Below, piece after piece: positions 11,805 to 26,706 of a DNA stretch of 64,000 bases; position 1 is the first letter of the stretch; each line of letters begins with the position of its first letter. Position numbers and translations under genes: made by a program. Source of the stretch: Mesorhizobium sp. CAU 1732 (GTDB taxonomy: Bacteria; Pseudomonadota; Alphaproteobacteria; Rhizobiales; Rhizobiaceae). The notes under the pieces were generated by a model. That model did not search any database. It worked only from the letters and a program-made list of their open reading frames with translations, and was not told where the DNA came from. Location of the stretch: NCBI RefSeq assembly GCF_039888675.1, contig NZ_JBDQQR010000001.1, positions 992,001 through 1,056,000 of the forward strand. The letters run 5' to 3'.

Positions 11805-12716
11805 TCACCATCCCGCTGCCACGGAAGCGACGTGGCGGGCGAAATCGGGCGTCTCCATCAGCGCCTTGCAGCGCGCGAAGCGTCCGTCCGCGTAGGCGCG
11901 GAAATCGTCGGCGGGGTTCTCGTTGGCAAGCTGGATGAGGCCCCACAGCGTCCAGAGAAGATCGCACATCGCCTTGTAGATGACGATCCGCCCGCGCTCC
12001 GCCGGGCTCGGCTCGCCGCCGAAATAGGCGCGGATCATCTCCTCGTCCTGCGCGGCATCGAACGCGCCTTCGACGGAGAGATCGCCGAGATCCCACATCG
12101 GGTCGTTCATGCCCGAATACTCCCAGTCGACGACCCACATGCGGCTTCCCGTATCCAGGAAATTCTCACAGAGCGGGTCGCAGTGGCATGCGACGAGCGG
12201 CAGCTTGTGGGCGTCGAGCGCGGCGCGCACAGCGCCATTCGCCTCGGCGACGATGTCGTGATAGCCGGCTGGCAGGGCGACATCCTTGGTCGAGAGGATT
12301 TTCAGATAGTCGTCGATCATCGAGAACAGCTCGAAGCGGAACGGGAAGACGGCACCTGACGCATGCAGCGTACGAAACGCCTCGCCGGCGCGCGCGGGCG
12401 AGCCCTTGCGCGCCTTGAACAGGTCGGGCGTCATCGTTGCGGCACCCTCGATGAAACGCGTGAGCATGATGCCGGTGTCGGGGTCGAAATGCAGAACGTC
12501 CGGGCTGACCCCCGCCTTGGCGGCCTCGCGTGCGGCGACTTCCTCATGCGCGCGGTTGATGTATTCCTCCGTGCCCTTGCCCGGAATGCGCAGGCAGTGG
12601 TCGCCGGCGCGAAACACCCGATTGGTCAGCCCGCCCATGCGCTCGAACGGGCCATCATAGCCTGCCAGGACCGGGATGGAAGCGATGAGGGGGCGGATTT
12701 CGGTCTCGTCGGTCAT
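11805..12716 (-). CDS. Choline/ethanolamine kinase-like (APH/LicA-type) phosphotransferase, paralogue 1
   Basis: A 303-residue small-molecule kinase. The Brenner motif is CHCDPLCENFLD with catalytic D180 and metal ligand N185, and the DFG-equivalent is VVDWEYSG with D197. The N-terminal GGLTNRVFR stretch resembles the nucleotide-positioning loop of LicA/choline kinases. The substrate is a small alcohol or amine that cannot be named from sequence. A second 303-residue kinase with the same architecture (D185, N190, D202) is encoded at 16288-17199 within the betaine-type operon, so this gene may be its duplicate or act on a related substrate. It is monocistronic by position: convergent with the lipoprotein gene and divergent from the methyltransferase gene across a palindrome. 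Confidence 0.85.
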   Translation of the reverse strand: MTDETEIRPLIASIPVLAGYDGPFERMGGLTNRVFRAGDHCLRIPGKGTEEYINRAHEEVAAREAAKAGVSPDVLHFDPDTGIMLTRFIEGAATMTPDLFKARKGSPARAGEAFRTLHASGAVFPFRFELFSMIDDYLKILSTKDVALPAGYHDIVAEANGAVRAALDAHKLPLVACHCDPLCENFLDTGSRMWVVDWEYSGMNDPMWDLGDLSVEGAFDAAQDEEMIRAYFGGEPSPAERGRIVIYKAMCDLLWTLWGLIQLANENPADDFRAYADGRFARCKALMETPDFARHVASVAAGW

Positions 12717-12927: not shown

Positions 12928-13587
12928 ATGGCCGACAATCACCACGAGGGCGCACTGGGCGCGGTCTATCAGGCCAAGCGCCCGGAGGAGGTCGCGGCGC
13001 TCTATGACGGCTGGGCGGACACCTACGATGCCGAAATGGCAGTGGCCGGTTATCGCCACCCCTCGATCTGCCTCGCTCTGCTCGCCCGGCACCTGCCACG
13101 CGGTGCCGCGCCGCTGCTCGACGCCGGCGCAGGCACCGGCCTCATCGGCGAATGGCTGGGCATCATGGGCTACCCGCATGTCGAGGCACTGGATATCTCG
13201 GAAGGCATGCTCGCCAAGGCCGCTGCCAAGGGCGTCTACGCGGCCCTGCATCGATTGGCGCTCGGCGGCGTGCTTCCCTTCGAGGACGGCCGGTTTGCGG
13301 GCATCGTATCCGCCGGCGTCTTCACCACCGGCCATGTCGGCGCGGAAGGCCTCGACGAGTTGATCCGCATTTGCCGGCCCGGCGGCGTCATCGTGCTGAC
13401 GGTGAAGAACACGCTGTGGGACGACGGTTTTTCGGCGCGGATCGCGGAACTCGAAGCTGGTGGCGTGGTGACGCGGGTAGAAGAGACGGAACCCTATGTG
13501 TCAATGCCCGGCGAACTCGGCACCGTGCCGAGCCGGGGGCTTGTGCTGCGGGTGGCGGTTCTTCCTTCTCCCCGTTTACGGGGGTGA
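12928..13587 (+). CDS. Class I SAM-dependent methyltransferase
   Basis: A 219-residue protein with the motif I sequence LLDAGAGTGLIGEWL (SAM-binding glycine loop), followed by VEALDISEGMLAKA and the post-II/III region GVLPFEDGRFAGIVSAGVF. The N-terminal LYDGWADTYDAEM matches UbiE/Williams-Beuren-type methyltransferases. The substrate is unknown. The last eight or so codons (VLPSPRLRG) are supplied by the left arm of palindromic element type A copy 2, suggesting that insertion of the element replaced the original C-terminus. Neighbouring kinases and a DMGDH-like enzyme hint at metabolism of methylated small molecules, but this is only context. Confidence 0.88.
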   Translation: MADNHHEGALGAVYQAKRPEEVAALYDGWADTYDAEMAVAGYRHPSICLALLARHLPRGAAPLLDAGAGTGLIGEWLGIMGYPHVEALDISEGMLAKAAAKGVYAALHRLALGGVLPFEDGRFAGIVSAGVFTTGHVGAEGLDELIRICRPGGVIVLTVKNTLWDDGFSARIAELEAGGVVTRVEETEPYVSMPGELGTVPSRGLVLRVAVLPSPRLRG

Positions 13588-13835: not shown

Positions 13836-16286
13836 CTACCCCTTCACCCTGTCCCCCACAGGGTCGTAGAGCGGCGCGAGATGCAGCGTGGCCGGCACGG
13901 TCTCCGTTGCCACCACCAGCTCGTATGAGCCGGACGTCAGGAAGTCGTCATCCACGCCGTCGGCGTTGCGCACATAGCCGTAGCCGATGCTCTTGCCGAT
14001 CGTGTAGCCGTAGCCGCCGGAGGTGAGGTAGCCGGCCGGCTTGCCGTCGCGCAGGATCGTTTCGCGGCCGAGCAGCACGGCGTCGGGAGCGTCGACGGTG
14101 AAGCACACGAGCCGCTTGGCGAGCGGCTTTGCGGCGGCGTCCTCACAGGCTTTCCGTCCGAGGAAATCGGTGTTCTTGCGAAGTTTTACGGCCCAGCCGA
14201 GGCCGGCTTCTGCGGTCAAGTCATTGGGCGTGATATCCGAGCCCCAGGCGCAATAGCCCTTTTCGAGCCGGAGCGATTCGAGCGCGCGGTAGCCGACGGG
14301 TCTGATGCCGAACGGGCGCCCGCCCTCCATGAGCGCGTCGAACACGTCGCCGGTGGCATCGATCGGAATGTGCAACTCCCAGCCGAGTTCGCCGACATAG
14401 GTGACGCGAAGCGCGCGCACGGTATGGCCCGCGATCTCGATCCCGCGTACATGGCCGAACGGGAAGGCGGCGTTCGAGATGTCGGCCTTGGTGACGTTGG
14501 CGAGCACCGCTCGGGCCTGCGGACCCATCAGCGACAGCGTGCCGAACTCTTCGGTCACGTCGGTGATCGTCACGTCGAGACCGGCCGGAACATGGTCCTC
14601 GATCCAGCCGAGATCGTGGGTACGGAAGCCGGTGCCGGTGACGATGTAGAACCGGTCCTCGTCCAGGCGCGCGACGGTCAGGTCGGCCTCGATACCGCCG
14701 CGCCGGTTGAGAAGCTGGGTGTAGGTGAGACGTCCGACCGGCTTCGAGACGTCGTTGGCGCAGATCCAGTCGAGGGCCTTGCCCGCATCCGGACCCGACA
14801 GCTCGTACTTCGCGAAGGACGACTGGTCGAACAGGCCGACATGCTCGCGGACATGGGCATGCTCCTTGCCGACCGGGCCGAACCAGTTCTGCCGGCCCAT
14901 GGAATAGACGTCTTTCGCGCCCGGTTCGGCCGAAAACCAGTTGGGCCGCTCCCAGCCGAGCTTGGAGCCGAACACCGCGCCATGCGCCTTGAGGCGGTCG
15001 TAGAGCGGCGAGACGATGGCCGGCCGGCCGCTGTCATATTCCTCGTGCGGGAAGCCGATCGTGTAGTGCTTGCCGTAGGCTTCGAGCGTGCGGTCGCGTA
15101 CCCAGGCGCGGTCGCAGTGCAGGCCGGAAAAGCGGCGGATGTCGACGACCCAGAGGTCGAGCGGCGCTTCGCCGTCGATCGCCCATTGCGCGAGAACCCA
15201 GCCCGCTCCGCCGCCCGACGCGATGCCGAAGGCGTTGAATCCCGCGCCGACGAACATGTTGGCGCATTCGGGTGCTGCGCCAAGGATGAAGTTCCCGTCC
15301 GGCGTGAAGCTTTCGGGACCGTTGATCATCTGCTTGACCCCGACCGTCTCCAAAGCCGGCACGCGCGCGATTGCCTGTGTCATGTGCTGCTCGAAATGGT
15401 CGTAGTCGTCATCGAACAGCCTGAACTCCCAATCGTCGGGCACGTCGCCGCCGAACTGGTCGAGATCCCAGGGCTGCGGGTTTGGCTCATAGCCGCCCAT
15501 CACCAGCCCCCCGACTTCCTCCTTGAAATAAGTGCGGCGGTCGGGATCGCGGATCGTCGGCGCATCGGACGACAGGCCGTCGACCTTCTCGGTGATGATG
15601 TACTGGTGTTTTACGGGCTGTAGCGGCACGGTGATCCCGGCCATCGCGCCCACCTGACGCGCCCATTGCCCGGCGCAATTGACGACCGTGTCGCAGGCGA
15701 TGTCGCCCTGCGTGGTCTTCACGGCCGTGATCCGTTTGCCCTCCATCTCGAAGCCGGTGACGCGCACCTCCTCGAACAGTTTCGCACCGTGCATGCGCGC
15801 GCCCTTGGCCAGCGACTGCGTGATGTCGGAGGGGCTGGCCTGACCGTCGGTCGGAAGCCACGACGCGCCGACCAGATCGCCGGTTTCCAGCAATGGCCAC
15901 ATGCGCTTCACCTCGTCGGGCGAGACGAGTTGCATGTCCATGCCGAAGCTTTTTGCGGTGGTGGCAAGGCGCTTGTACTCGGTCCAGCGGTCCTGGTTCG
16001 TGGCCAGCCGCAGGCAACCGGTCATCTTCCAGCCGGTGGCAAGCCCGGTCTCGGCTTCCAACTCCTTGTAGAGATCGACCGAATATTTGAGCACGCGCGT
16101 GATCGAGGCGGACGACCGCAACTGGCCGACGAGCCCCGCCGCGTGCCATGTCGAGCCTGAGGTGAGCTTGCCCTGCTCGAGCAGGATCACGTCGGCCTTG
16201 TGGTCGCGGGCGAGGTGGTAGGCGGTGGAGCAACCGATGATGCCGCCGCCGATGACGACGATCTGGGCGTGGGATGGCAGGGCCAT
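13836..16286 (-). CDS. FAD-dependent dimethylglycine/sarcosine dehydrogenase-like oxidoreductase with GcvT domain
   Basis: An 816-residue flavoprotein. The N-terminal half is a DAO-type FAD domain with VVIGGGIIGCSTAYHL (about 10-25) and SGSTWHAAGL, where H48 corresponds to the histidine that covalently binds FAD in dimethylglycine and sarcosine dehydrogenases. The C-terminal half (from about residue 430) resembles the tetrahydrofolate-binding glycine-cleavage T protein fold, including YVGELGWELHIP and CAWGSDITPNDLTAEAGLG. Such enzymes oxidatively demethylate N-methyl amines and pass the C1 unit to THF. The start at ATG 16286, one base after the kinase stop, gives the GGG motif at the usual place; the frame stays open upstream only as a shadow. 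It is the last gene of the betaine-type operon. The exact substrate is unknown. Confidence 0.88.
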   Translation of the reverse strand: MALPSHAQIVVIGGGIIGCSTAYHLARDHKADVILLEQGKLTSGSTWHAAGLVGQLRSSASITRVLKYSVDLYKELEAETGLATGWKMTGCLRLATNQDRWTEYKRLATTAKSFGMDMQLVSPDEVKRMWPLLETGDLVGASWLPTDGQASPSDITQSLAKGARMHGAKLFEEVRVTGFEMEGKRITAVKTTQGDIACDTVVNCAGQWARQVGAMAGITVPLQPVKHQYIITEKVDGLSSDAPTIRDPDRRTYFKEEVGGLVMGGYEPNPQPWDLDQFGGDVPDDWEFRLFDDDYDHFEQHMTQAIARVPALETVGVKQMINGPESFTPDGNFILGAAPECANMFVGAGFNAFGIASGGGAGWVLAQWAIDGEAPLDLWVVDIRRFSGLHCDRAWVRDRTLEAYGKHYTIGFPHEEYDSGRPAIVSPLYDRLKAHGAVFGSKLGWERPNWFSAEPGAKDVYSMGRQNWFGPVGKEHAHVREHVGLFDQSSFAKYELSGPDAGKALDWICANDVSKPVGRLTYTQLLNRRGGIEADLTVARLDEDRFYIVTGTGFRTHDLGWIEDHVPAGLDVTITDVTEEFGTLSLMGPQARAVLANVTKADISNAAFPFGHVRGIEIAGHTVRALRVTYVGELGWELHIPIDATGDVFDALMEGGRPFGIRPVGYRALESLRLEKGYCAWGSDITPNDLTAEAGLGWAVKLRKNTDFLGRKACEDAAAKPLAKRLVCFTVDAPDAVLLGRETILRDGKPAGYLTSGGYGYTIGKSIGYGYVRNADGVDDDFLTSGSYELVVATETVPATLHLAPLYDPVGDRVKG

Positions 16287-16287
16287 G

Positions 16288-17199
16288 TCAGGTCTTTCCG
16301 TAGGCTGTGCGGTGTGCGTCGAGCGCGAAGTCGAGGCGGGCAAGGTTTTCGTCGGAATAGGCGGCGTAGTCGATTCCCGTGGTATAGAGATGAAGCTCGG
16401 ACACCATGCTCCACATCGCCTCGCGCAGCAGCGAGGCGCATTGCATGGCCGACAGCGAGCGCATGAGGCGCGGGTCCGGCGCATCGCCGAAATAGGCGCG
16501 CAACAGCGCTTCGGACCGGGCCGCGTCGAACTCTGCATTGGACGAGACGCCGGCGAGGTCGAACATCGCCGTGGAAAACCCGGCATACTCGAAATCGATC
16601 AGCCAGAGCCGGTCGCCCGTGTCGAGGATGTTCGCGGGCAGGAGGTCGTTGTGGCCGAAGACGATCGGCAGCGGAACCTGCTCGCTTTCGAGCGCGTGCG
16701 AGAGCGCGAGATAGCGATCGAGCTCCGGCGTTTTGCGGCTGCCGCCATCGCGGAGGGTGCGGGCATAATCGCGGATGACGTGAAATACCCAGAACATGAA
16801 GCCCGCGCCGCTGACCTCGCCGGGCATCTCGTCGTGGAAGCGGCGCATCAGTGTGGCGATCCGCTCGACATTGGCGCGCACATCCTCCGGGCCGAAGGTC
16901 TTTGCGCCGAGGAACTCGCTCACCATCACGCCCGGCTGCGCGAATTCGAGCGCCGGCGCGAAGCCTGCGCGGTGCGCCGCGCGCGCGGTCATGATCTCGC
17001 GCTCGCGATAGACATGGTGGAACGGAAAATCCTTGCCGAAGCGTACGACGTGCCGCCCGGCGGAATCGGTGACGAGGTAGTTCTGGTTCGACAGCCCGCC
17101 CGCCAGCGGCTCGATGGTGATCGGACCGGACCAGCAGGGCAGGGCATGGATGCGGTTTTCGGTGGTGGTCACGTCGCCAGCTCTCGATACAGACATCAT
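16288..17199 (-). CDS. Choline/ethanolamine kinase-like (APH/LicA-type) phosphotransferase, paralogue 2
   Basis: A 303-residue kinase. The Brenner motif is FGHNDLLPANILD with D185 and N190, and LIDFEYAG supplies D202. The GGLSNQNYLV segment near residue 34 resembles the substrate-positioning loop of LicA/choline kinases. ATG 17199 overlaps the permease stop (ATGA), and the stop is one base from the start of the flavoenzyme gene, so it is firmly inside the transporter-flavoenzyme operon. A kinase between an uptake system and a demethylating dehydrogenase suggests phosphorylation of the imported alcohol or amine. This arrangement is unusual for classical betaine catabolism. The DeoR regulator nearby would fit a phosphorylated inducer (inference). 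Confidence 0.88.
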   Translation of the reverse strand: MMSVSRAGDVTTTENRIHALPCWSGPITIEPLAGGLSNQNYLVTDSAGRHVVRFGKDFPFHHVYREREIMTARAAHRAGFAPALEFAQPGVMVSEFLGAKTFGPEDVRANVERIATLMRRFHDEMPGEVSGAGFMFWVFHVIRDYARTLRDGGSRKTPELDRYLALSHALESEQVPLPIVFGHNDLLPANILDTGDRLWLIDFEYAGFSTAMFDLAGVSSNAEFDAARSEALLRAYFGDAPDPRLMRSLSAMQCASLLREAMWSMVSELHLYTTGIDYAAYSDENLARLDFALDAHRTAYGKT

Positions 17200-19220
17200 C
17201 ACACCAACCCCAGCCTTGCCTTCGTCCGGGCCGCCCCCGCCGAGATCAGCCGGTCGGCGATGATGGCGATGAAGGCGACGGCCAGACCGGCGACGAGGCC
17301 GCGCCCGGTGTCGGCCTTGGTCAGCGCGACATAGACCTCCTGGCCGAGATCGCGCGTGCCGACCAGAGCGGTGATCACCAGCATCGACAGCGCGAACATG
17401 ATCGTCTGGTTGATGCCCAGCATGATCTCCGGCAGCGCCAGCTTCAGCTTCACCTTGGTCAGGATCTGCCGGCGCGTCGCGCCCATGGCGCGGGCGGCCT
17501 CGACCAGCCGCGGATCGACGCGCTGAAGGCCGAGCACCGTGTAGCGGATCGACGGCGCGATGGCGTAAGCGACGACCGCGAGCATGGCGGTGAAATCGCC
17601 GACCCGGAACAGCATGACCGCCGGCATCAGATAGACGAAGGAGGGCAGCGTCTGGAGCGTGTCGATCACCACCCGGACGAAGCCCCAGAGGCGATCGCGC
17701 TCCGCCGCCATGATGCCCACCGGCACACCGATGAGACACGCGAACAGCACCGACACGCCGCAGAGATAGACTGTCACCATCGCGTTTTCCCATTGCCCCG
17801 TCGCGACGATCAGGAACGCAAGCGTGCCGACGAGCAATGCCAGCCGCAGCCCGCCCAGCACATGGCCCGCGAGCGCGAGCAGCGCGACGACGCCGAGCCA
17901 TGGAAGACCGAGCAGGAACCGCTTGAACGGTATCAGGATGTTGAGAAGAACCGCGTTCTTCAGCCCTTCCAGCGTGTCGAAATAGTTGATGTTGATCCAG
18001 CGCACGACGTTCGACCAGAAATCCCCCGTCGAAAGCTGGTAGGCGGCAGGGTAGGTCTGCACGGCGGGGATGACGAGGCCGGCGATGGCAGTGATCGCCA
18101 CGAAGGCGAGGGCAGCGATCGTGTAGGCATGGCGCAGATGCCACGCGCCTGTATGGGACTGTGCGGTGCGGCTGGCGAATGCCTGGCTCAGCCGGTCGAG
18201 CGCGATGGCCAGCGCGACGATCGCAAAGCCTGCCTCCATGCCCGCGCCGATATCGAGCCGGCGCAGCGCCGAGAGCACGTCGAAGCCGAGCCCGCCCGCC
18301 CCGATCATCGAGGCGATGATGACCATGTTGAGCGACAGCATGATCACCTGGTTGACGCCGACCATCAGGCTTTCCTTGGCCGAGGGCACCATGATCCGCC
18401 ACGTTATCTGGCGGCGCGTGCAGCCGACCATGCGCCCGAGATCGCGCACCTCGGCCGGCACGCCGTTGAGCGCGAGAACCGTGATGCGGATCATCGGCGG
18501 CATGGCGTAGATCAGCGTCGCGACGATGGCCGCGACCGGGCCGAAGCCGAACAGCACGAGGATCGGCACGAGATAGGCGAAAACCGGCATCGTCTGCATC
18601 AGGTCGAGAACCGGCCGGATCGCGCGCTCGAAGGCCGGCCAGCGATAGGCGGCGATGCCGAGGACGAGCCCGCCCGCGACGCCGATGGGCACCGCGACAA
18701 GGATCGACGCCAGCGTGATCATCGCGCTCTTCCACTGGCCGAACATGGCGAGGAACAGGAAGCAGGCGGCGACGAGGATGGCCAGTCTGCGCCCCCCGGC
18801 ATACAGCCCCATCAGGCCGACGATGGCCACGACCGCGATCCAAGACAGCGGCGGCACGATCTGGATGGCGGACGAGCCCTGGCCGGACAGGAAACCGGTT
18901 GAGATAAGGCTCAGCACAACGCGGTAGGGCGCATCGACAATCGCGGCGAGAAAACGCGTGAATTCGGTGAAGGTGAAGAGGCCGAAGCTCGCCTCGTTCA
19001 CCAGCCATTTCATGGCGTTGCCGATCCACCGGACAGCGGGAATTTGCCAGGCGCGCGGATAATCGAACGCCCACGCTGCGACGGGCTTGCCGAACTGCCA
19101 GAGCAGGATGCAGGCGAGGAGAATGATGGTGGCGACGAGGATGCGAGATGCCGACCGGCGCGGCGGCGTTTCGTTGCTGGTGAAGGCGTCCGCGTTGGAT
19201 GGGGCGGCCGGGACGCTCAT
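17199..19220 (-). CDS. Glycine betaine/proline-type ABC transporter permease, tandem-fused double permease
   Basis: A 673-residue protein carrying two ProW-type permease domains in one chain. Each half has its own EAA-like loop: GRMVGCTRRQITWRIMVPSA in the first half and ARAMGATRRQILTKVKLKLA in the second. Each is followed by a GVNQVIMLSLNMVIIASMIG-like or GINQTIMFALSMLVITALVG-like membrane segment. Standard ProW has one domain and works as a homodimer, so this fusion supplies both halves. About a dozen or more membrane segments are visible. ATG 19220 with an AGAGGA ribosome-binding site is the likely start; the upstream open frame is palindromic repeat. The stop overlaps the kinase start. 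Confidence 0.93.
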   Translation of the reverse strand: MSVPAAPSNADAFTSNETPPRRSASRILVATIILLACILLWQFGKPVAAWAFDYPRAWQIPAVRWIGNAMKWLVNEASFGLFTFTEFTRFLAAIVDAPYRVVLSLISTGFLSGQGSSAIQIVPPLSWIAVVAIVGLMGLYAGGRRLAILVAACFLFLAMFGQWKSAMITLASILVAVPIGVAGGLVLGIAAYRWPAFERAIRPVLDLMQTMPVFAYLVPILVLFGFGPVAAIVATLIYAMPPMIRITVLALNGVPAEVRDLGRMVGCTRRQITWRIMVPSAKESLMVGVNQVIMLSLNMVIIASMIGAGGLGFDVLSALRRLDIGAGMEAGFAIVALAIALDRLSQAFASRTAQSHTGAWHLRHAYTIAALAFVAITAIAGLVIPAVQTYPAAYQLSTGDFWSNVVRWININYFDTLEGLKNAVLLNILIPFKRFLLGLPWLGVVALLALAGHVLGGLRLALLVGTLAFLIVATGQWENAMVTVYLCGVSVLFACLIGVPVGIMAAERDRLWGFVRVVIDTLQTLPSFVYLMPAVMLFRVGDFTAMLAVVAYAIAPSIRYTVLGLQRVDPRLVEAARAMGATRRQILTKVKLKLALPEIMLGINQTIMFALSMLVITALVGTRDLGQEVYVALTKADTGRGLVAGLAVAFIAIIADRLISAGAARTKARLGLV

Positions 19221-19257
19221 CGACCATCCTCTGGGACCTGCAAACCGGTCGATGGCG

Positions 19258-19393
19258 CGGCACCCCCTCCGTCTCGCTTCGCTCGCCACCTCCCCCGCTT
19301 CGCAGGGGAGGATCCCCGGTCGAGGACTGCCGCAACGCGGATCCTCCCCCATTCATGGGGGAGGGGGACCGCCGTAGGCGGTGGAGGGGGTGA
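19258..19393. repeat. Dispersed palindromic element, type D
   Basis: An imperfect long inverted repeat: CACCCCCTCCGTCTCGCTTC on the left and a complementary GGCGGTGGAGGGGGTG on the right, with inner CCTCCCCCGC/GCAGGGGAGG-type hairpins. It fills most of the 199-bp gap between the transporter ATPase and permease genes. Confidence 0.65.
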
Positions 19394-19419
19394 TATCCGA
19401 AGAAGCGCAGACATCGCTG

Positions 19420-20430
19420 TCACCCCCGCATCAGGACGTCGACGACGTCCTCACGATGGAGCTGGCCAACGGTCCCGCCGCCAGCATCGACCACCCGCAG
19501 TGTCGTGGCGCCACCGTCGAACAGCGGGGCGGCTTCCGCAATGCGCGCGGTGTCGATGATGAATGCCGAACCCGTCGCGTCGCCCTCGACGGCACGCATC
19601 AGCGAGCGCACGCGAATGACTTTCGCCCTGGGCACGTTCCGCGTGAATTCGGCGACGTAGTCGGTCGCCGGGTCGAGCACCAGCGCTTCCGGCGTGTCGC
19701 ATTGTACGATCGCGCCGTCCTTCATGATGGCGATGCGGTCGGCAAGCCGGATCGCCTCGTCGAAATCATGCGTGATGAAGACGATCGTCTTCCTGAGCAC
19801 CGATTGCAGCCGCAAAAACTCGTCCTGCATCTCACGACGGATGAGCGGGTCGAGCGCCGAGAACGGCTCGTCCAGGAACCAGAGCTCCGGTTCGACCGCA
19901 AGCGAGCGCGCAATGCCGACGCGCTGTTGCTGCCCGCCCGACAGCTCGCGCGGAAACGCAGTCTCGCGCCCGGCCAGACCGACGAGCTCGATCATTTCGC
20001 GTGCCCGCGCCTCGCGCTTGTCGCGTGGCACACCCTGCACCTCGAGCGGGAAGGCGACGTTGGCGAGCACGCTCAGATGCGGCAGCAGCGCGAAGTGCTG
20101 GAACACCATGCCCATCTGGTGCCGGCGGATTTCGATCATCCGCTTTTCGTCGGCCGCCAGCAGGTTCTCGCCGTTGAACAGGATTTCGCCGGCGGTGGGT
20201 TCGACCAGACGTGACAGGCAGCGCACCAGCGTCGACTTGCCGGAGCCCGAGAGGCCCATGATAACGAAGATCTCGCCCTCACGGACCTCCAGATTGACGT
20301 CGCGCACGGCAGCGACCAGCCCGCTTCCGGGAAGGCGCGACGCGTCGATGCCGCCGCGCGCAAAGGCGTCTGCGCCGGAGCCGAACAGCTTCCAGACATT
20401 GCGGCAGATGAGTTTGGGGGTGGGGGTCAT
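19420..20430 (-). CDS. Glycine betaine/choline-type ABC transporter ATP-binding protein (ProV-like)
   Basis: A 336-residue ATPase. Walker A is GLSGSGKST, the signature is LSGGQQQRVGIAR and Walker B is LWFLDEPFSALDP, with an H-loop in VFITHDFDEAIRLADRI. The N-terminal VWKLFG region and the extra C-terminal domain of about 90 residues, a partial CBS-like regulatory module, are typical of ProV/OpuAA, where it senses ionic strength. ATG 20430 was chosen because the region upstream of it is palindromic repeat. It lies between the binding protein and permease genes, with repeats in both flanking gaps. Confidence 0.93.
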   Translation of the reverse strand: MTPTPKLICRNVWKLFGSGADAFARGGIDASRLPGSGLVAAVRDVNLEVREGEIFVIMGLSGSGKSTLVRCLSRLVEPTAGEILFNGENLLAADEKRMIEIRRHQMGMVFQHFALLPHLSVLANVAFPLEVQGVPRDKREARAREMIELVGLAGRETAFPRELSGGQQQRVGIARSLAVEPELWFLDEPFSALDPLIRREMQDEFLRLQSVLRKTIVFITHDFDEAIRLADRIAIMKDGAIVQCDTPEALVLDPATDYVAEFTRNVPRAKVIRVRSLMRAVEGDATGSAFIIDTARIAEAAPLFDGGATTLRVVDAGGGTVGQLHREDVVDVLMRG

Positions 20431-20459
20431 GTGACGATTGGCAGGGAGCGTTCTGTCGC

Positions 20460-20573
20460 GCCCCCCTCTGGCCTGCCGGCCATCTCCCCCACGAGGGGGG
20501 AGATCACGCAGTGTCGATGACGAGAGTAATCTCCCCCCTCGTGGGGGAGATGGCCGGCAGGCCAAAGGGGGGC
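20460..20573. repeat. Dispersed long inverted repeat, type E
   Basis: Two nearly perfect arms of about 45 bp (20460-20504 and 20529-20573), each containing GGCCTGCCGGCCATCTCCCC or its complement, flank a 24-bp centre. The element lies in the 176-bp gap between the binding-protein and ATPase genes and would form a very stable hairpin in the mRNA. Confidence 0.85.
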
Positions 20574-20606
20574 AACGTAGGGCATGGACGTCTAATCAGG
20601 CGATGT

Positions 20607-21578
20607 CTACTTCACCCACTCCGACCATTTCGCCTCGTTGGCCGTCATCCACTCGCCGACCACATCCGAGACGCTCTTGCCGTCGAGGTCGACGGCCGTG
20701 ATCATCGCGCCCATATCGTTATTGTCGAGTTGGAATGCCTTGATCGCCTCGTAGGCGCCCGGCCATTTGTCCTTCACGCCCGACCAGCCGACCTTCCAGA
20801 TTTCGCCGAACGGCTTGCCGCAGTCATACTGCATGTCGGGGTTCGAGCCCCAGGCCGGGTCAGTGTAGCATTCGGCGGTGTATTCCGGGAATTCGACCCA
20901 CTCGCCTTCATATTTGGCCGGGGCCCAATGCGGAGCGTAGATCCACAGCAGGATCGGCGCCTGCCGCTGATAGGCGGATTCAAGCTCGGCGAAAAGCGCG
21001 GCGTCGGTGCCCGCGTGGATCACCTCGAAGGGAAGATCGAGCGCCTCGACGCGCTCGTCGTCAAAGCCGCCCCAGGTCACCGGCCCGCCGAGATAGCGGC
21101 CCTTGGGCGCGGTCTCGGCCGTCGAAAACGCCTCGGCACAGGCTTCGTCCTTCAGCGCTTCCCAATTGGGCAGGCCGGGGCACTTCTCCTTCATGTAGGT
21201 GGGATACCACCACTCCTCCTTGGCCTGCATGCCGGTCGGGCCGAAATTCTCGACCTTGCCGGTCGCGGTCGCCGCGTCCATCGCCTCGCGCCCGGTCGTC
21301 TCCCACATTTCCATCGCGACGTGCAGGTCGCCGGATTCGAGGCCGGCGAACTGTGCGAGATAGTCTGCCTGAACGTATTCGACGTTGTAGCCGGCCTTCT
21401 TCAGCACTTCGCCCATGATCTCGGTGGTGATGAGCTGGCCCGTCCAGTCATGCAGCGTCAGCTTGATCGGGTCGGTGGATTCCTGCGCGTGTGCCGAAGC
21501 CGCACCCAGCGAGCACAATGCCGCGGAAACCGCGAGTGTCCGCAACGTCCTGAAAAACATGCGATGGTTCTGAAGCAT
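20607..21578 (-). CDS. Glycine betaine/choline-type ABC transporter substrate-binding protein (OpuAC family)
   Basis: A 323-residue periplasmic binding protein with an N-terminal signal peptide (cleavage after about residue 31, ASAHA). The OpuAC-fold features are seen in IKLTLHDWTGQLITTEIMGEVLKKAGY and in many aromatic residues (several Trp and Tyr, for example KEEWWYPTYMKEK and LLWIYAPHW) that form cation-pi cages for quaternary ammonium groups in this family. Two Cys pairs may form disulfides. It is the first gene of the operon leading to the ATPase, double permease, kinase and flavoenzyme. Start at ATG 21578; an internal ATG at 21560 is possible. The ligand is probably a betaine or a choline-like alcohol. 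Confidence 0.9.
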   Translation of the reverse strand: MLQNHRMFFRTLRTLAVSAALCSLGAASAHAQESTDPIKLTLHDWTGQLITTEIMGEVLKKAGYNVEYVQADYLAQFAGLESGDLHVAMEMWETTGREAMDAATATGKVENFGPTGMQAKEEWWYPTYMKEKCPGLPNWEALKDEACAEAFSTAETAPKGRYLGGPVTWGGFDDERVEALDLPFEVIHAGTDAALFAELESAYQRQAPILLWIYAPHWAPAKYEGEWVEFPEYTAECYTDPAWGSNPDMQYDCGKPFGEIWKVGWSGVKDKWPGAYEAIKAFQLDNNDMGAMITAVDLDGKSVSDVVGEWMTANEAKWSEWVK

Positions 21579-21755
21579 CTGGAAACTCCTGCTCGCCCTC
21601 TGTCAGCCTGTATCGTTGTTGGCGCGGGCTCAGGCAGGGTGAAGCGAGCTTCCCCTCGCGCCGGACCTAACGCAACGGCAGTGTCCGTCAGTGAAAGTCT
21701 CGTTGTCAATCAACCGTGTGGTATTTTTTGTTTTTTTGACCGATTATGCGAGACG

Positions 21756-21777
21756 AATTGGAGTAATCACTTCAATT
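21756..21777. promoter_or_regulatory. Imperfect 22-bp palindrome in the divergent DeoR/transporter promoter region
   Basis: The half-sites AATTGGAGTAA and TCACTTCAATT match at 9 of 11 positions as inverted repeats. They lie 48 bp before the DeoR start and about 180 bp before the binding-protein start, in an unusually AT-rich stretch. The site is a candidate operator for the adjacent DeoR regulator. Confidence 0.5.
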
Positions 21778-21824
21778 TGCACAAAATGCAGTCAACTGCC
21801 GATACCGTAACCTGTGAGGAGACG

Positions 21825-22613
21825 ATGGCGGGCGTGTCACGACGACATGGCGAGATATTGCGGCTCCTGCGCGAGGAGGGGACGCTGTCCGTCGCCGATC
21901 TTGCAGGTAGGCTGGGCGTGTCGCTGGAGACCGTGCGCCGCGACGTGAAGCCGCTGACCGATGACGGCCAGGTGCTCAAGATGCACGGCGCCGTCGGCCT
22001 GCCGTCGGATGTCGGCGAAGCGCCATTCGAGCGGCGGATGCGCGAAAACGCTGCGGCCAAGCGCGCGGTCGCGCGGCACGTAGCGGGCACCATCCGCGAT
22101 GGCGAATCCATCATGCTCGATACGGGCACGACCACCAGCTACCTCGCGCGCGAACTGCTCGGCCATCGGCGGCTGACCGTTGTGACGAACTCCTCCGACA
22201 TCGCGCGCACGCTGGCGACGGTGAACGGCAACCGCGTCTACATGGCCGGCGGCGAACTGCGCCCGGATTCAGGCGCGGCCTTCGGCGTATCCGCGATCGA
22301 GTTCGTGTCGCGTTTTTCCGTGGCGCACGCGATCATCTCGACCGGAGCGATCGACGCGGTGGACGGCGTGATGGACTACGATCTGGAAGAGGCCGAATTC
22401 GCCCGCATGGTGCTGTCGCGCGGCCAGCGCTCGCTGGTCGTCACCGACCAGACGAAATTCGGGCGGCGCGGACTGGTGCATGTCTGTGGCTTCGACGGGT
22501 TCGACGAATTGGTGGCAGACGCGGCGCCGTCACAGGACGTTGCCCAGGCGATAGAAGCAGGTCGGGCGAGGCTGGTTTTGGCCGGGCCGCAGGTCACGGC
22601 GGCCTACCCCTGA
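21825..22613 (+). CDS. DeoR/GlpR family transcriptional regulator
   Basis: A 262-residue repressor. The N-terminal helix-turn-helix is RHGEILRLLREEGTLSVADL and AGRLGVSLETVRRDVKPL, and the C-terminal DeoRC sugar-phosphate isomerase-like sensor has LDTGTTTSYLARELL, VVTNSSDIARTL and AGGELRPDSGAAFG. DeoR proteins usually bind a phosphorylated small metabolite. The frame is open upstream, but ATG 21825 has a strong GAGGAG ribosome-binding site; ATG 21786 is the alternative. It is divergent from the betaine-type operon, which encodes a kinase, so a phosphorylated inducer made by that kinase is plausible (inference). The 3' end overlaps the convergent fdsD by 10 bp. Confidence 0.92.
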   Translation: MAGVSRRHGEILRLLREEGTLSVADLAGRLGVSLETVRRDVKPLTDDGQVLKMHGAVGLPSDVGEAPFERRMRENAAAKRAVARHVAGTIRDGESIMLDTGTTTSYLARELLGHRRLTVVTNSSDIARTLATVNGNRVYMAGGELRPDSGAAFGVSAIEFVSRFSVAHAIISTGAIDAVDGVMDYDLEEAEFARMVLSRGQRSLVVTDQTKFGRRGLVHVCGFDGFDELVADAAPSQDVAQAIEAGRARLVLAGPQVTAAYP

Positions 22614-22954
22614 GAGGCGGCGATTTCGCCGACGGATTCGCCTGCCGCCTGTCCCTTGCCATCCGGGGAGCCGGCATTGGCCTTATCGCCGGCGCCCATC
22701 CCGACGCCGGGCGGGGCGTTGGGCCGCCGGATCGCGGCCGCCGCCTCGCGCACGATGGGCAGCAGGGGCTCGCCACCTGCATCCATCACCTCGAAGAAGT
22801 GTCCGCGCATGCGCGGTTCCCAGAATTTGTTGATGTGTTCGGCCACGCCCGCGACGCCTTCATCATGCGGCTTCGACAGGAAGAACGTGCCGATCTGGTT
22901 CGCCATGCGGATGATCTTGACGTGAGGGTCGAACGGGGCGTCTTCATGCGACAT
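22604..22954 (-). CDS. fdsD: NAD-dependent formate dehydrogenase delta subunit
   Basis: A 116-residue protein. The N-terminal 70 residues match the FdsD pattern: KIIRMANQIGTFFLSKPHDE, then VAEHINKFWEPRMRGHFFE. FdsD is a small accessory subunit of the cytosolic FdsABG(D) molybdenum formate dehydrogenase, involved in assembly and stability. The tail after about residue 75 (GDKANAGSPDGKGQAAGES) is low-complexity and longer than in many homologues. It is the last gene of the fds operon. Its start overlaps the end of fdhD by 11 bases, and its 3' end overlaps the convergent DeoR gene. Confidence 0.9.
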   Translation of the reverse strand: MSHEDAPFDPHVKIIRMANQIGTFFLSKPHDEGVAGVAEHINKFWEPRMRGHFFEVMDAGGEPLLPIVREAAAAIRRPNAPPGVGMGAGDKANAGSPDGKGQAAGESVGEIAASQG

Positions 22955-23768
22955 TCTGGGCTGCTCCGCTGGTCACGCGTTCAGGATGCGTGAAGATGTC
23001 GAATTCATCGCCGCGCACGAGCGCGACGAGCGTCATGCCGGCCTCGTCGGCCGTGCGAATGGCAAGTGCCGTCGGCGCCGAAACCGCGATGATGGCGGAT
23101 GCGCCAATCGCAGCCGTTTTCTGCACCATCTCGACGGAAACGCGGCTGGTGACCACGACTGCGCCCGACGCGCCGCCGATGCCTGCTTTTGCAAGCGCGC
23201 CGGCGAGCTTGTCGAGCGCGTTGTGGCGGCCGACATCTTCGCGCGCCAGCACGACGCCCTTGCCCGGAACGTAGAAGCCGGCCGCGTGCACCGCGCCGGT
23301 CTGGGCGTGCATGGGCTGCAGCTTGGACAGGAGTTTCACCGCCTGGGTGACGTCTTCGGCACCAAGCGTCAGCGTCGACTTACGCACGTCGCGGACCGAG
23401 CGCATCGCCTCGTCGATGGATTCGATGCCGCACAGCCCGCAGCCGACCGGACCGGCGAGCCGCCTGCGGCGCTGCTCGAACCGCGTGTTGGCGGTGTCCT
23501 TGAGACGGATTTGGATGTCGATGCCTGCCTCGACATCCTCAACCGCGATCGTGTCGATTTCAATGGAGGACGCGATGATGCCTTCGGTGAGCGAGAAGCC
23601 GAGCGCGAAATCCTCGAAATCCGCGGGCGAGGCCATCATCACCGCATGGGTCGTGCCCGCGTAGGACAGCGCGACGGGCGTTTCCTCCGGCACCATGCGC
23701 GCGGCTGCCTGCGTGCCGGAGGCGCGTCGTGCGATGCGGATCGTGGAGGTGAGGGGCGGGCGGGTCAT
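22944..23768 (-). CDS. fdhD: Formate dehydrogenase accessory sulfurtransferase FdhD
   Basis: A 274-residue protein that transfers sulfur from a cysteine desulfurase to the molybdenum cofactor of formate dehydrogenase. The catalytic CxxC is C110-G-L-C113 in GPVGCGLCGIESIDEA. Other conserved parts are FALGFSLTEGII and LAREDVGRHNALDKLAGAL. The start at ATG 23768 skips an upstream open stretch that is a palindromic repeat. It lies between fdsA and fdsD in the fds operon. Confidence 0.96.
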   Translation of the reverse strand: MTRPPLTSTIRIARRASGTQAAARMVPEETPVALSYAGTTHAVMMASPADFEDFALGFSLTEGIIASSIEIDTIAVEDVEAGIDIQIRLKDTANTRFEQRRRRLAGPVGCGLCGIESIDEAMRSVRDVRKSTLTLGAEDVTQAVKLLSKLQPMHAQTGAVHAAGFYVPGKGVVLAREDVGRHNALDKLAGALAKAGIGGASGAVVVTSRVSVEMVQKTAAIGASAIIAVSAPTALAIRTADEAGMTLVALVRGDEFDIFTHPERVTSGAAQNVA

Positions 23769-23781
23769 TGATGACAGCCTT

Positions 23782-23805
23782 CTTCTCCCCGTGAACGGGG
23801 AGAAG
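23782..23805. repeat. Short palindrome related to type A arms
   Basis: CTTCTCCCC (23782-23790) and GGGGAGAAG (23797-23805) form a hairpin in the 58-bp gap between fdsA and fdhD. It matches the outer arm of the type A elements without their core. Confidence 0.7.
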
Positions 23806-23826
23806 GGAAGGTCTGAGCCCCGCACA

Positions 23827-26706
23827 TCACTCCGCAGCTTCCATGTGCCCCGCGATGCGGCGCGAGCGCTGCGAGAGGTCTTCGTACTCTTCCTGCCAGT
23901 TGGAGGGGCCGTTGGAGGGGCCGACCTGAACCGCGGTGACCTTGTATTCCGGGCAGTTGGTCGCCCAGTCGGAGAAGTCGGTTGTGATGACGTTGGCCTG
24001 CGTGTCGGGGTGGTGGAATGTCGTGTAGACCACGCCCGGCGCGACGCGCTCGGTGATGAGTGAGCGCAGGGTCGTCTCGCCCGCGCGGCTGGTCAGCCGC
24101 ACCCAATCGCCGTCGCGCACGCCGCGCTGTTCGGCGTCGTGCGGGTGGATTTCCAGCCTGTCCTCACCATGCCAGACGACGTTGTCGGTGCGACGCGTCT
24201 GAGCGCCGACATTGTACTGCGACAGGATGCGGCCGGTGGTGAGCAGAAGCGGGAAGCGCGGGCCGGTCTTCTCGTCGGTTGCGACATATTCGGTGCGGAT
24301 GAACTTGCCCTTGCCGCGCACGAAGCCGTCGATATGCATGATCGGCGTGCCGAGCGGTGCCTGCTCGTTGCAGGGCCACTGAACGGAGCCCATTTCCTCG
24401 AGATAGGCATAGGAAACCTTGGCGAAGCTCGGCGTGGTTGCGGCGATCTCATCCATGATCTGCGACGGATGCGCATAGGACCAGCTAAGCCCCATCGCCT
24501 GCGCGAGTTTCTGCGTGACTTCCCAGTCCGACAGGCCGTTCTTGGGCGCCATCACCTTGCGCACGCGGTTGATGCGGCGCTCGGCATTGGTGAAGGTGCC
24601 GTCCTTCTCCAGGAAGGTCGAGCCCGGCAGGAAGACATGGGCGTAGCGTGCCGTCTCGTTGAGGAAGAGGTCGTGCACGACGACGCACTCCATCGCGGCG
24701 AGGCCGGCGGAGACGTGCTTCGTGTCCGGGTCTGACTGAAGGATGTCCTCGCCCTGGATGTAGATGCCCTTGAACGTGCCCTCGACGGCCGCGTCCAGCA
24801 TGTTCGGGATGCGCAGGCCCGGCTCGTTGTCGAGCTTGGTGCCCCAGAGCGAATCGTAGATGTCGCGCACGGCATCGCCCGAGATGTGGCGGTAGCCGGG
24901 AAGCTCGTGCGGGAACGAGCCCATGTCGCACGCGCCCTGGACGTTGTTCTGCCCGCGCAGCGGGTTCACGCCGACGCCGCGCCGGCCGATATTGCCCGTG
25001 GCCATGGCGAGGTTGGCGATCGCGATGACGGTCGTCGAGCCTTGGCTGTGCTCGGTGACGCCGAGGCCGTAATAGATCGCGCCGTTGCCTCCCGTCGCAT
25101 AGAGGCGCGCGGCGCCGCGGATTTCCTCGGCCGGCACGCCGGAGAGCTTCTCGACTTCTTCCGGCGAGTTCTGCGGCTCGGCGACGAAGGCCGCCCAGTC
25201 CTCGAACTCCGACCAGTCGCAACGCTCGCGGATGAACGCCTCGTCGAACAGGCCTTCGGTGACGATGACATGGGCGAGCGCGGTCAGCACCGCGACATTC
25301 GTGCCGGGCTTGAGCGGCAGATGGTGCGTCGCCTTGGCGTGGACGGAATCCACCGTCTCCGTGACGCGCGGATCGAGCACGATCAGCTTGGCGCCCTGGC
25401 GGATGCGCTTCTTCATGCGCGAGGCGAAAACCGGATGCGCAGCCGATGGATTGGCGCCGATCACCATGATCACGTCGGAATCCTCGACCGAGTCGAAATC
25501 CTGCGTGCCGGCCGAGGTGCCATAGGTCTGGCCGAGGCCGTAGCCGGTCGGCGAGTGGCAGACGCGGGCGCAGGTATCGACGTTGTTGTTGCCGAAACCC
25601 TGCCGGATCAGTTTCTGGACGAGATAGGTTTCCTCATTGGTGCAGCGCGACGAGGTGATGCCGCCGATCGCGGCGCGCCCGTACTGGTACTGGAGGCGGC
25701 GGAATTCATTGGCGGTATGGGTCAGCGCCTCTTCCCACGTGACCTCGCGCCATGGATCGGTGATCTTTTCGCGGATCATCGGGTTGAGGATGCGCTCCTT
25801 GTGCGTCGCATAGCCATAGGCGAAGCGACCCTTGACGCAGCTATGGCCGCGATTGGCCTTGCCGTCCTTCCACGGAACCATGCGAACGAGTTCGTCGCCG
25901 CGCATCTCGGCCTTGAAGGAGCAACCGACGCCGCAATAGGCGCAGGTGGTGATCACGGAGTGTTCCGGCTGGCCGATCTGGATCACCGACTTTTCGGTCA
26001 GCGTCGCGGTCGGGCAGGCCTGCACGCAGGCGCCGCAGGAGACGCACTCGCTCTCGAGAAACGGTTGGTGCATGCCGGGCGAGACGCGGCTTTCGAAGCC
26101 GCGACCTTCGATCGTCAGCGCGAAGGTGCCCTGCACCTCCTCGCAGGCGCGCACGCAGCGCGAGCAGACGATGCACTTTGACGGGTCGTAGGTGAAGTAG
26201 GGGTTGGACTCGTCCTTTGCCATCCAGCGGAAATTGTCCGCGCCGTCCTGCTTATTGAAGACGTGGTTCTCACCCTCGTAGCCATAGCGCACATCGCGCA
26301 GGCCGACGACACCGGCCTGCGTCTGCAATTCGCAGTCGCCATTGGCAGCACACGTCAGGCAGTCGAGCGGATGGTCGGAGATGTAGAGTTCCATCACGCC
26401 GCGACGGATATCCTTGAGGCGTGTGGTCTGGGTCTTGACCACCATGCCCGGCGCAACCGGCGTCGTGCAGGAGGACGGCGTGCCGTTGCGGCCTTCGATC
26501 TCGACGAGACAGAGGCGGCAGGACCCGAACGCATCGACCATGTCGGTCGCGCAGAGCTTGGGGATCGCGATGCCGGCCTCCATCGAGGCGCGCATGATCG
26601 AGGTGCCGGCGGGAACGGTGACGTCGAACCCGTCGACATTGAGCGTGACCTGCTCTGTCGATTTCGAGGCCGGTGTGCCGTAGTCGATTTCGTGAACGAG
26701 ACCCAT
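23827..26706 (-). CDS. fdsA: NAD-dependent formate dehydrogenase alpha (catalytic) subunit
   Basis: A 959-residue molybdenum bis-MGD enzyme that oxidises formate to CO2. N-terminal cluster ligands in order: [2Fe-2S] C52, C63, C66, C80; a His/Cys-ligated cluster site at H112, C116, C119, C125; two ferredoxin-type sets C178/C181/C184/C188 and C221/C224/C227/C231; and the proximal [4Fe-4S] C255, C258, C262, C290. The catalytic site is in CARVCHSPTGYGL, with C383 as the active-site Cys (no selenocysteine), close to Cys386 of Rhodobacter FdsA. The C-terminal MGD-binding domain has RTDNVVWHGEDRLEIHP. Electrons go through FdsB/FdsG to NAD+. An element-bearing 211-bp gap precedes it. Confidence 0.97.
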   Translation of the reverse strand: MGLVHEIDYGTPASKSTEQVTLNVDGFDVTVPAGTSIMRASMEAGIAIPKLCATDMVDAFGSCRLCLVEIEGRNGTPSSCTTPVAPGMVVKTQTTRLKDIRRGVMELYISDHPLDCLTCAANGDCELQTQAGVVGLRDVRYGYEGENHVFNKQDGADNFRWMAKDESNPYFTYDPSKCIVCSRCVRACEEVQGTFALTIEGRGFESRVSPGMHQPFLESECVSCGACVQACPTATLTEKSVIQIGQPEHSVITTCAYCGVGCSFKAEMRGDELVRMVPWKDGKANRGHSCVKGRFAYGYATHKERILNPMIREKITDPWREVTWEEALTHTANEFRRLQYQYGRAAIGGITSSRCTNEETYLVQKLIRQGFGNNNVDTCARVCHSPTGYGLGQTYGTSAGTQDFDSVEDSDVIMVIGANPSAAHPVFASRMKKRIRQGAKLIVLDPRVTETVDSVHAKATHHLPLKPGTNVAVLTALAHVIVTEGLFDEAFIRERCDWSEFEDWAAFVAEPQNSPEEVEKLSGVPAEEIRGAARLYATGGNGAIYYGLGVTEHSQGSTTVIAIANLAMATGNIGRRGVGVNPLRGQNNVQGACDMGSFPHELPGYRHISGDAVRDIYDSLWGTKLDNEPGLRIPNMLDAAVEGTFKGIYIQGEDILQSDPDTKHVSAGLAAMECVVVHDLFLNETARYAHVFLPGSTFLEKDGTFTNAERRINRVRKVMAPKNGLSDWEVTQKLAQAMGLSWSYAHPSQIMDEIAATTPSFAKVSYAYLEEMGSVQWPCNEQAPLGTPIMHIDGFVRGKGKFIRTEYVATDEKTGPRFPLLLTTGRILSQYNVGAQTRRTDNVVWHGEDRLEIHPHDAEQRGVRDGDWVRLTSRAGETTLRSLITERVAPGVVYTTFHHPDTQANVITTDFSDWATNCPEYKVTAVQVGPSNGPSNWQEEYEDLSQRSRRIAGHMEAAE

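What the first reader, a model, noticed from the sequence alone, without database searches (positions are those of the whole stretch)
13836..22613. Betaine-type uptake operon with a kinase and a DMGDH/GcvT flavoenzyme, and a divergent DeoR regulator
The sequence shows one minus-strand operon: OpuAC-type binding protein, ProV-like ATPase, double permease, LicA/choline-kinase-like kinase and a DMGDH-like enzyme, with the last three genes overlapping or one base apart. A small-molecule kinase is not part of the known glycine betaine to sarcosine pathway. Together with a DeoR regulator, which usually senses phosphorylated metabolites, this suggests that an imported alcohol or amine is phosphorylated before or during oxidative demethylation. 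The substrate is unknown.
Basis: partly seen in the sequence, partly recalled or inferred. Interest (0 to 1): 0.7.

Follow-up and report, generated by a model that had tools for sequence, protein, structure and literature searches.

The report
Kinase-demethylase operon, probably for methylethanolamines
Many soil and some marine bacteria carry a paired kinase and methyl-removing enzyme that probably tag small methylated amino alcohols with phosphate and strip their methyl groups for use, a route that has not been tested in the laboratory.

Summary
The operon is real and the gene calls are right: binding protein, ATPase, double permease, choline/ethanolamine-type kinase (KIN1), DMGDH-like FAD/GcvT demethylase (DMG), divergent DeoR. 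Its conserved core is the pair KIN1-DMG. Of 56 full DMG-clade genes in 151 family genomes, 52 have KIN1 within 200 bp; the other 4 have a second kinase, KIN2, in the same cluster. The ABC transporter is optional: 37 of 106 non-redundant KIN1 loci have it, 9 have EutH, the ethanolamine permease family, none has both. All 50 binding proteins keep three Trp and the Glu of the TMAO pocket of TmoX, with three positions changed. Another DMGDH-like clade lies in clusters for 2-aminoethylphosphonate, the C-P analogue of phosphoethanolamine. I infer: N-methylated ethanolamines are imported, phosphorylated, then demethylated to phosphoethanolamine, methyls going to tetrahydrofolate and electrons to ETF. 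Substrate and order of steps are not shown. Five paper searches of an open-licence library found no description. New variant of a known kind.

The parts
13836..16286 (-). DMGDH-like FAD/GcvT demethylase (DMG), 816 aa
   Evidence: Pfam DAO, FAO_M, GCV_T, GCV_T_C; best solved relatives human and rat DMGDH, 549 and 548 bits; catalytic residues kept
16288..17199 (-). choline/ethanolamine-type kinase (KIN1), 303 aa
   Evidence: Pfam APH and Choline_kinase over cut-off; solved relatives 3dxq and LicA 4r77
17199..19220 (-). double permease of a betaine/choline-type ABC transporter, 673 aa
   Evidence: two BPD_transp_1 stretches; TIGR03416 416.5 bits, cut-off 363
19420..20430 (-). ProV-like ATPase, 336 aa
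   Evidence: TIGR01186 333.6 bits, cut-off 326.6
20607..21578 (-). OpuAC-type periplasmic binding protein with a TmoX-like pocket, 323 aa
   Evidence: OpuAC 3.6e-50; closest solved chain TmoX 4xz6, 6e-72; pocket pattern in 50 relatives
21825..22613 (+). divergent DeoR/GlpR-type regulator, 262 aa
   Evidence: HTH_DeoR and DeoRC; DeoR in 85 of 106 non-redundant KIN1 loci
11805..12716 (-). second choline-kinase-like kinase (KIN2), close relative of PDB 3dxq
   Evidence: Pfam; 3dxq 564 bits, 7.9e-169; in 44 of 106 KIN1 groups
12928..13587 (+). class I SAM methyltransferase, recurrent neighbour of KIN2, role unknown
   Evidence: Pfam; 35 of 106 groups
20460..20573 (.). palindromic repeat between binding-protein and ATPase genes
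   Evidence: 48-nt arms, 96% complementary; 41 matches of a 61-nt query in the genome

Best explanation
A catabolic module for N-methylated ethanolamines (N,N-dimethyl- and/or N-monomethylethanolamine, DMEA/MMEA). Uptake is by a TmoX-like ABC transporter (as here) or, in relatives, by EutH. KIN1 phosphorylates the hydroxyl group with ATP. The phosphate traps the compound and gives the DMGDH-like enzyme an anion in place of dimethylglycine's carboxylate. Its FAD oxidises an N-methyl to the iminium, whose one-carbon unit passes to tetrahydrofolate in the GcvT part as 5,10-methylene-THF. Electrons leave through ETF. The end product is O-phosphoethanolamine, used after dephosphorylation or directly. 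The DeoR regulator senses the phosphorylated amine. Shown: gene content, conserved pairing, conserved catalytic and pocket residues. Inferred: substrate, order of steps, electron acceptor here, effector.
For: 52 of 56 full DMG-clade genes in 151 family genomes lie within 200 bp of KIN1; two more, cut off by contig ends, also do (G150, G001); the remaining 4 (G080, G118, G015, G034) have KIN2 in the same cluster. Control: none of 13 loci chosen for a DMGDH-like enzyme of the AEP or 'other' clades has a KIN1/KIN2 hit in about 20 kb or less. The DMG clade is one side of a branch with 98% SH-aLRT. EutH follows DMG on the same strand in 8 of 134 KIN1 loci and lies next to it on the other strand in 2. 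In the family sample 5 of 151 genomes have EutH over cut-off, 3 of these 5 genes next to KIN1-DMG. In the class sample the only EutH over cut-off (1 of 289 genomes, G309) lies directly behind KIN1-DMG, but its contig has the length of L183's, probably the same genome. EutH and ABC never co-occur (0 of 134; P 0.017 on 106 groups, not corrected for kinship). Binding-protein pocket: W55, W102, E131, W177 of TmoX kept in 50 of 50; F106 to G in 49 (A in 1), F220 to W and W222 to Y in 50 (TmoX pocket from passages of PMC8918994). In 7 of 9 loci of the AEP clade there are PhnW, PhnA, PhnY, PhnS2 or PbfA genes, and in 8 of 9 a DeoR gene beside the enzyme. Candidate phosphate contacts, found after the fact: K442 is Lys in 150 of 150 of the KIN1 clade, 16 of 16 KIN2-linked, 8 of 9 AEP (Arg in 1), 1 of 6 other and 0 of 4 outgroup enzymes (His in human DMGDH by the alignment); R250, three residues before Tyr253, is Arg in 148 of 150 of the KIN1 clade and in no AEP or 'other' row. 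ETF genes lie behind the pair in two 1.4-Mb, 32% GC genomes (L218, L219); in Salipiger ETF, FolD and PurU follow. IMPase-type genes near 5 of 146 loci.
Against: No biochemistry. The residue patterns are post hoc: of 816 columns, 12 show a Lys/Arg excess in the KIN1 clade, the comparison groups are 4-16 rows, and a control pattern gives as many shared columns (12 against 8). The AEP clade groups with other DMGDH-like enzymes and not with the KIN1 clade, so the phosphonate argument is analogy, not descent. 6 of 60 KIN1 genes in the family sample have no DMG or DMG fragment beside them, nor do 8 of the 20 class-level KIN1 loci fetched (of 29 hits), one of them with the full transporter (L228). 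In L233 a KIN1 relative lies about 2 kb from an 'other'-clade enzyme. Two of 5 family EutH genes are not near the module (L202, L203). The window genome has no EutB and no fused class III aminotransferase/kinase, so the fate of phosphoethanolamine is open. An aromatic cage also fits fully quaternary ligands such as choline, which a flavin amine oxidase cannot demethylate (general chemistry).
Confidence: 0.55

Rival explanations
1. Demethylation first: the DMGDH-like enzyme acts on free dimethyl- or methylethanolamine, and the kinase phosphorylates the ethanolamine that results (for lipid synthesis or a phospho-lyase).
For: The same gene set and transporters fit equally; solved relatives of the kinase are named choline/ethanolamine kinases.
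Against: The best-known enzymes of this fold act on substrates with a carboxylate, and free DMEA lacks an anion (inference); DMGDH-like enzymes also sit in aminoethylphosphonate clusters. The window genome lacks EutB and a fused phospho-lyase/kinase.
Confidence: 0.17
2. Same mechanism on another methylated amino alcohol (for example an N-methylated aminopropanol or aminodiol), not ethanolamine derivatives.
For: The three pocket changes against TmoX point to a ligand other than TMAO but do not name it; some relatives have other ABC types in front of KIN1 (L080, L094).
Against: EutH, a family named for ethanolamine, is the recurrent replacement transporter.
Confidence: 0.17
3. An ordinary glycine betaine to dimethylglycine to sarcosine operon in which the kinase is an accidental neighbour.
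For: Transporter and flavoenzyme families match betaine catabolism.
Against: A kinase in the cluster of all 56 full DMG-clade genes of the family sample, a separate enzyme clade, and a Glu in the binding pocket, unfavourable for a carboxylate (inference).
Confidence: 0.05

Closest known systems
Dimethylglycine dehydrogenase (human/rat DMGDH; AgDMGO)
   Same: FAD + GcvT architecture, FAD-attaching His, His and Tyr of the presumed dyad, folate-part Asp
   Different: Separate clade that is clustered with a kinase in 56 of 56 cases of the family sample
TmoXWV trimethylamine N-oxide transporter
   Same: Binding protein closest to TmoX among solved structures; three Trp and the Glu of the TMAO pocket kept
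   Different: F106, F220 and W222 changed in all 50 homologues; tmm and tdm were not searched for, and none is annotated under these names in the tables
Choline/ethanolamine kinases (LicA 4r77; 3dxq)
   Same: APH/choline-kinase family, catalytic residues
   Different: KIN1 is only distantly related to LicA (49 bits); its genes sit beside a demethylase
N-methyl-aminoethylphosphonate oxidation (PbfB/C/D)
   Same: FAD enzymes in AEP clusters that act on N-methylated aminophosphonates (PMC10590968: abstract, outline, section 8 and passages seen)
   Different: PbfB-D share 20.6-31.2% identity over PF01266 with known enzymes in the paper's Table 1; GcvT and tetrahydrofolate have 0 occurrences in its main text. 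The AEP-cluster enzymes seen here are two-part DMGDH-like proteins

Membership tests
Dimethylglycine dehydrogenase family (architecture) | DAO + FAO_M + GCV_T + GCV_T_C in one chain with catalytic residues | tested here: met
Dimethylglycine dehydrogenase (function) | oxidises N,N-dimethylglycine | not testable with these tools
   none; separate clade
TmoX (TMAO-binding protein) | pocket residues W55 W102 F106 E131 W177 F220 W222 | tested here: not met
   four of seven kept; F106, F220, W222 changed
Choline/ethanolamine kinase family | Choline_kinase profile over cut-off and catalytic motifs | tested here: met
   72.5 bits, cut-off 29; H183, D185, N190, D202 in 168 of 168
Choline/ethanolamine kinase (function) | phosphorylates choline or ethanolamine | not testable with these tools
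   none
EutH as replacement transporter in relatives | PF04346 over cut-off | tested here: met
   L171, L100, L040; G070, G040, G098; G309; the others by clustering only
GntI pre-guanitoxin N-oxide kinase | score over the NCBIfam cut-off | tested here: not met
   132.5 bits, cut-off 357
PbfB/PbfC/PbfD | place within an AEP degradation cluster | tested here: not met
   among 146 fetched loci (L039-L184) one hit to these phn/pbfA probes at 45% identity or more: PhnS2 in L089, about 7 kb from KIN1

The most novel reading that the evidence does not exclude
A widespread, undescribed phospho-base demethylation pathway: methylated ethanolamines are phosphorylated and then oxidatively demethylated stepwise (KIN1-DMG, and KIN2-DMG2 where present) to phosphoethanolamine, the catabolic mirror image of the phospho-base methylation by which plants make phosphocholine (recalled). 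It reaches from rhizobia to 1.4-Mb, 32% GC alphaproteobacteria, and a Lys shared by kinase-linked and phosphonate-linked enzymes (K442) holds the phosphorus group.
Probability: 0.4. Interest if true: 0.75.

Novelty: new variant of a known kind. Interest (0 to 1): 0.62.

Why it matters
N-methylethanolamines come from membrane lipids and plant choline synthesis (recalled). A defined gene pair for their breakdown would give a marker for a carbon, nitrogen and one-carbon source in root and marine habitats. It would explain genes now annotated only as 'phosphotransferase' or 'choline/ethanolamine kinase family protein' and 'FAD-dependent oxidoreductase', and would show that DMGDH-type enzymes can be re-aimed by adding a phosphate to the substrate.

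Tried and rejected
Residue signature in the flavoenzyme: a first filter (positions up to 430) showed Lys406 and His390 as marks of the KIN1 clade, which I first overlooked; on re-checking, a scan of all columns gave 12 Lys/Arg columns, of which only K442 is shared by the KIN1, KIN2-linked and AEP clades. It is post hoc; I did not change the main confidence for it.

AEP enzymes as direct sister of the window clade: suggested by pairwise identity (50-54% against 41-48%) but not upheld by the tree, where AEP groups with the other DMGDH-like enzymes (quick method; 78 rows, made of the window, 14 drawn at random from the close rows, and all more distant rows).

A DeoR operator in the divergent promoters: k-mer and dyad counts on 85 promoters exceed mononucleotide shuffles, but related sequences inflate them and the window's own DeoR start was mis-called in that script; inconclusive.

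GntI (guanitoxin N-oxide kinase) as identity of KIN1: far below cut-off. Fused ethanolamine-phosphate lyase/kinase in the window genome: the class III aminotransferase matches lie in frames of at most 564 codons. EutB: absent.

Paper searches for the system: searches gave no description of it in their listings (open-licence library only; no listed paper was opened for this). Searches were for TmoX, DMGDH and phosphonate enzymes.

Gene calls in fetched loci came from my own composition rule; one search missed genes and was replaced, which still gives wrong starts for some genes and misses genes in low-GC or short loci. Rows dropped: BLAST hits below the coverage limits stated in the scripts; KIN1 loci with 95% or more identical kinases were merged for the group counts (134 to 106).
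Full report
Observation. On the minus strand: binding protein 20607-21578, ATPase 19420-20430, double permease 17199-19220, kinase KIN1 16288-17199 and flavoenzyme DMG 13836-16286; a DeoR regulator runs the other way at 21825-22613. Permease and kinase overlap by one base; kinase and DMG are one base apart. The window lies in a 5.44-Mb genome of 6 contigs. Named relatives of KIN1 are mostly Mesorhizobium, with Shinella, Aminobacter, Hoeflea, Phyllobacterium, Rhizobium and others. Just outside the stated range is a second kinase, KIN2 (11805-12716 -), 32% identical to KIN1 and close to PDB 3dxq (564 bits).

Conservation. A search with KIN1 in 151 genomes of the family gave matches at E<=1e-20 in 59 genomes, one of them (G118) by KIN2 only. 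Of 56 full DMG-clade genes (57% identity or more; listed rows), 52 have KIN1 within 200 bp. The other four, in G080, G118, G015 and G034, lie in clusters with KIN2 and a second DMGDH-like gene. Conversely 52 of 60 KIN1 genes have such a DMG gene within 200 bp, and two more have a DMG piece cut off by the contig end (G150, G001); six have none. Of the loci fetched in the family and from named genomes and plasmids, 134 had a called KIN1 gene (window included), in 106 groups at 95% identity: DMG in 97 groups, DeoR in 85, KIN2 in 44, ABC transporter in 37, EutH in 9. At class level 28 of 289 genomes have KIN1 at E<=1e-50. I fetched 20 of the 29 hits: 12 have DMG at 54% or more next to KIN1, and 8 do not, among them one with the whole transporter but no DMG (L228).

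Transport. In loci without the ABC transporter a EutH gene follows DMG on the same strand in 8 loci, and in 2 loci it lies next to it on the other strand. EutH was confirmed by profile for L171, L100 and L040 (1.4e-122 to 5e-125) and for the genomes G070, G040, G098 and G309; the other members rest on sequence clustering. EutH is rare here: 5 of 151 family genomes over the cut-off, 3 of these 5 genes beside KIN1-DMG; 1 of 289 class genomes over the cut-off, also beside it, although that contig has the length of L183's and is probably the same genome. No locus has both transporters, and 82 of 134 have neither within the fetched stretch. The two unlinked EutH genes (L202, L203) show that EutH is not exclusive to this module.

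Binding protein. Its closest solved relative is TmoX. The TmoX pocket residues come from passages of PMC8918994. In 50 of 50 homologues (near-duplicates not removed) W55, W102, E131 and W177 are kept, position 220 is Trp and 222 is Tyr; position 106 is Gly in 49 and Ala in 1. So the ligand is of the same chemical type as TMAO, a methylated ammonium with a group that bonds to Glu, but is probably not TMAO. A hydroxyl group fits (inference).

Enzymes. KIN1 keeps its catalytic residues in 168 of 168 relatives. The DMG clade of 150 sequences keeps the FAD-attaching His (149), His227 (150), Tyr253 (150) and the GcvT Asp (149) (identified by alignment to human DMGDH, whose His/Tyr dyad is described without residue numbers in section 14 of PMC5082570). 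In the tree of 78 rows the DMG clade is one side of a branch (98), the AEP-cluster clade another (100). The AEP clade groups with other DMGDH-like enzymes (99). The KIN2-linked enzymes of Proteobacteria branch outside, together with one 'other' row from L200; the actinomycete row L104 has no sure place (quick method, SH-aLRT only). Clade-specific positive residues exist: R250, K406 and R741 in the KIN1 clade alone, R667 in the KIN1 and KIN2-linked clades, K442 in the KIN1, KIN2-linked and AEP clades. K442 is the natural candidate for a phosphate or phosphonate contact, but it was found after the fact among 816 columns.

Link to phosphonates. Nine loci hold a DMGDH-like enzyme of the AEP clade. 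Seven have genes for 2-aminoethylphosphonate use: PhnW, PhnA, PhnY and PbfA in L194, PhnY and PhnS2 in L193 and PhnS2 in L196 are over NCBIfam cut-offs, the others were recognised by similarity. Eight have a DeoR gene beside the enzyme. AEP is the C-P counterpart of phosphoethanolamine. Enzymes of this fold therefore seem to have been recruited to ethanolamines that carry a phosphorus group, once by importing the phosphonate and once with a kinase. This is analogy from context, not proof. The paper on FAD enzymes of AEP clusters (PMC10590968: abstract, outline, section 8, passages) describes PbfB, C and D, which are other, distant proteins.

After the demethylase. In two genomes of 1.4 Mb and 32% GC (L218, L219), ETF-beta and ETF-alpha-like genes lie on the same strand about 600 bp behind DMG; the next gene in L218 is FixC-like, below cut-off, and looks like ETF-quinone oxidoreductase to me. 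In Salipiger abyssi the record annotates ETF-beta, a FAD-binding protein that I read as ETF-alpha, FolD and PurU behind DMG. This suits an enzyme that passes electrons to ETF and methyls to folate. In this window the convergent neighbours at 22944-26706 are FdhD and formate dehydrogenase alpha, both over cut-off. The fate of phosphoethanolamine is open here: no EutB and no fused aminotransferase/kinase. IMPase-type genes in 5 and FGase in 4 of 146 fetched loci, and glutamine-synthetase-like genes in 2 at 35% identity or more (three Shinella loci at 30-31%), hint at dephosphorylation and glutamylation in some relatives.

Judgement. The pairing of kinase and demethylase is well supported. The ethanolamine-type substrate is likely. 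Phosphorylation before demethylation is the best reading but is not shown.

Noticed in passing
L193, L194, L196, L197, L198, L199, L210: A clade of two-part DMGDH/GcvT-like enzymes lies in 2-aminoethylphosphonate degradation clusters, in 6 of these 7 beside a DeoR gene; it is not PbfB, C or D and may demethylate N-methylated aminoethylphosphonates.
   Followed up: partly
L104:7545-10882: In the actinomycete Nonomuraea gerenzanensis a KIN1-like kinase (35%) is divergent from and adjacent to a DMGDH-like gene (45%), hinting at the same pairing outside Proteobacteria.
   Followed up: no
window 20460-20573: Palindromic repeat (48-nt arms) between two operon genes; a 61-nt query from it has 41 matches in the genome.
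   Followed up: partly
L218 and L219: The kinase-demethylase pair with ETF genes occurs in two small (1.4 Mb), 32% GC alphaproteobacterial genomes; L219 also has, divergent from KIN1, a gene like homocysteine S-methyltransferases, below cut-off.
   Followed up: partly
L200:7281-16287: An AEP-clade DMGDH-like gene, a second DMGDH-like gene and a GbcA-like Rieske oxygenase (362 bits, cut-off 670) lie together; possibly a route for a trimethylated compound.
   Followed up: no
window 22944-26706: FdhD and formate dehydrogenase alpha genes are the convergent neighbours of the DeoR gene; similar genes lie within the fetched stretch of 6 (alpha) and 7 (FdhD) of 106 KIN1 groups.
   Followed up: partly
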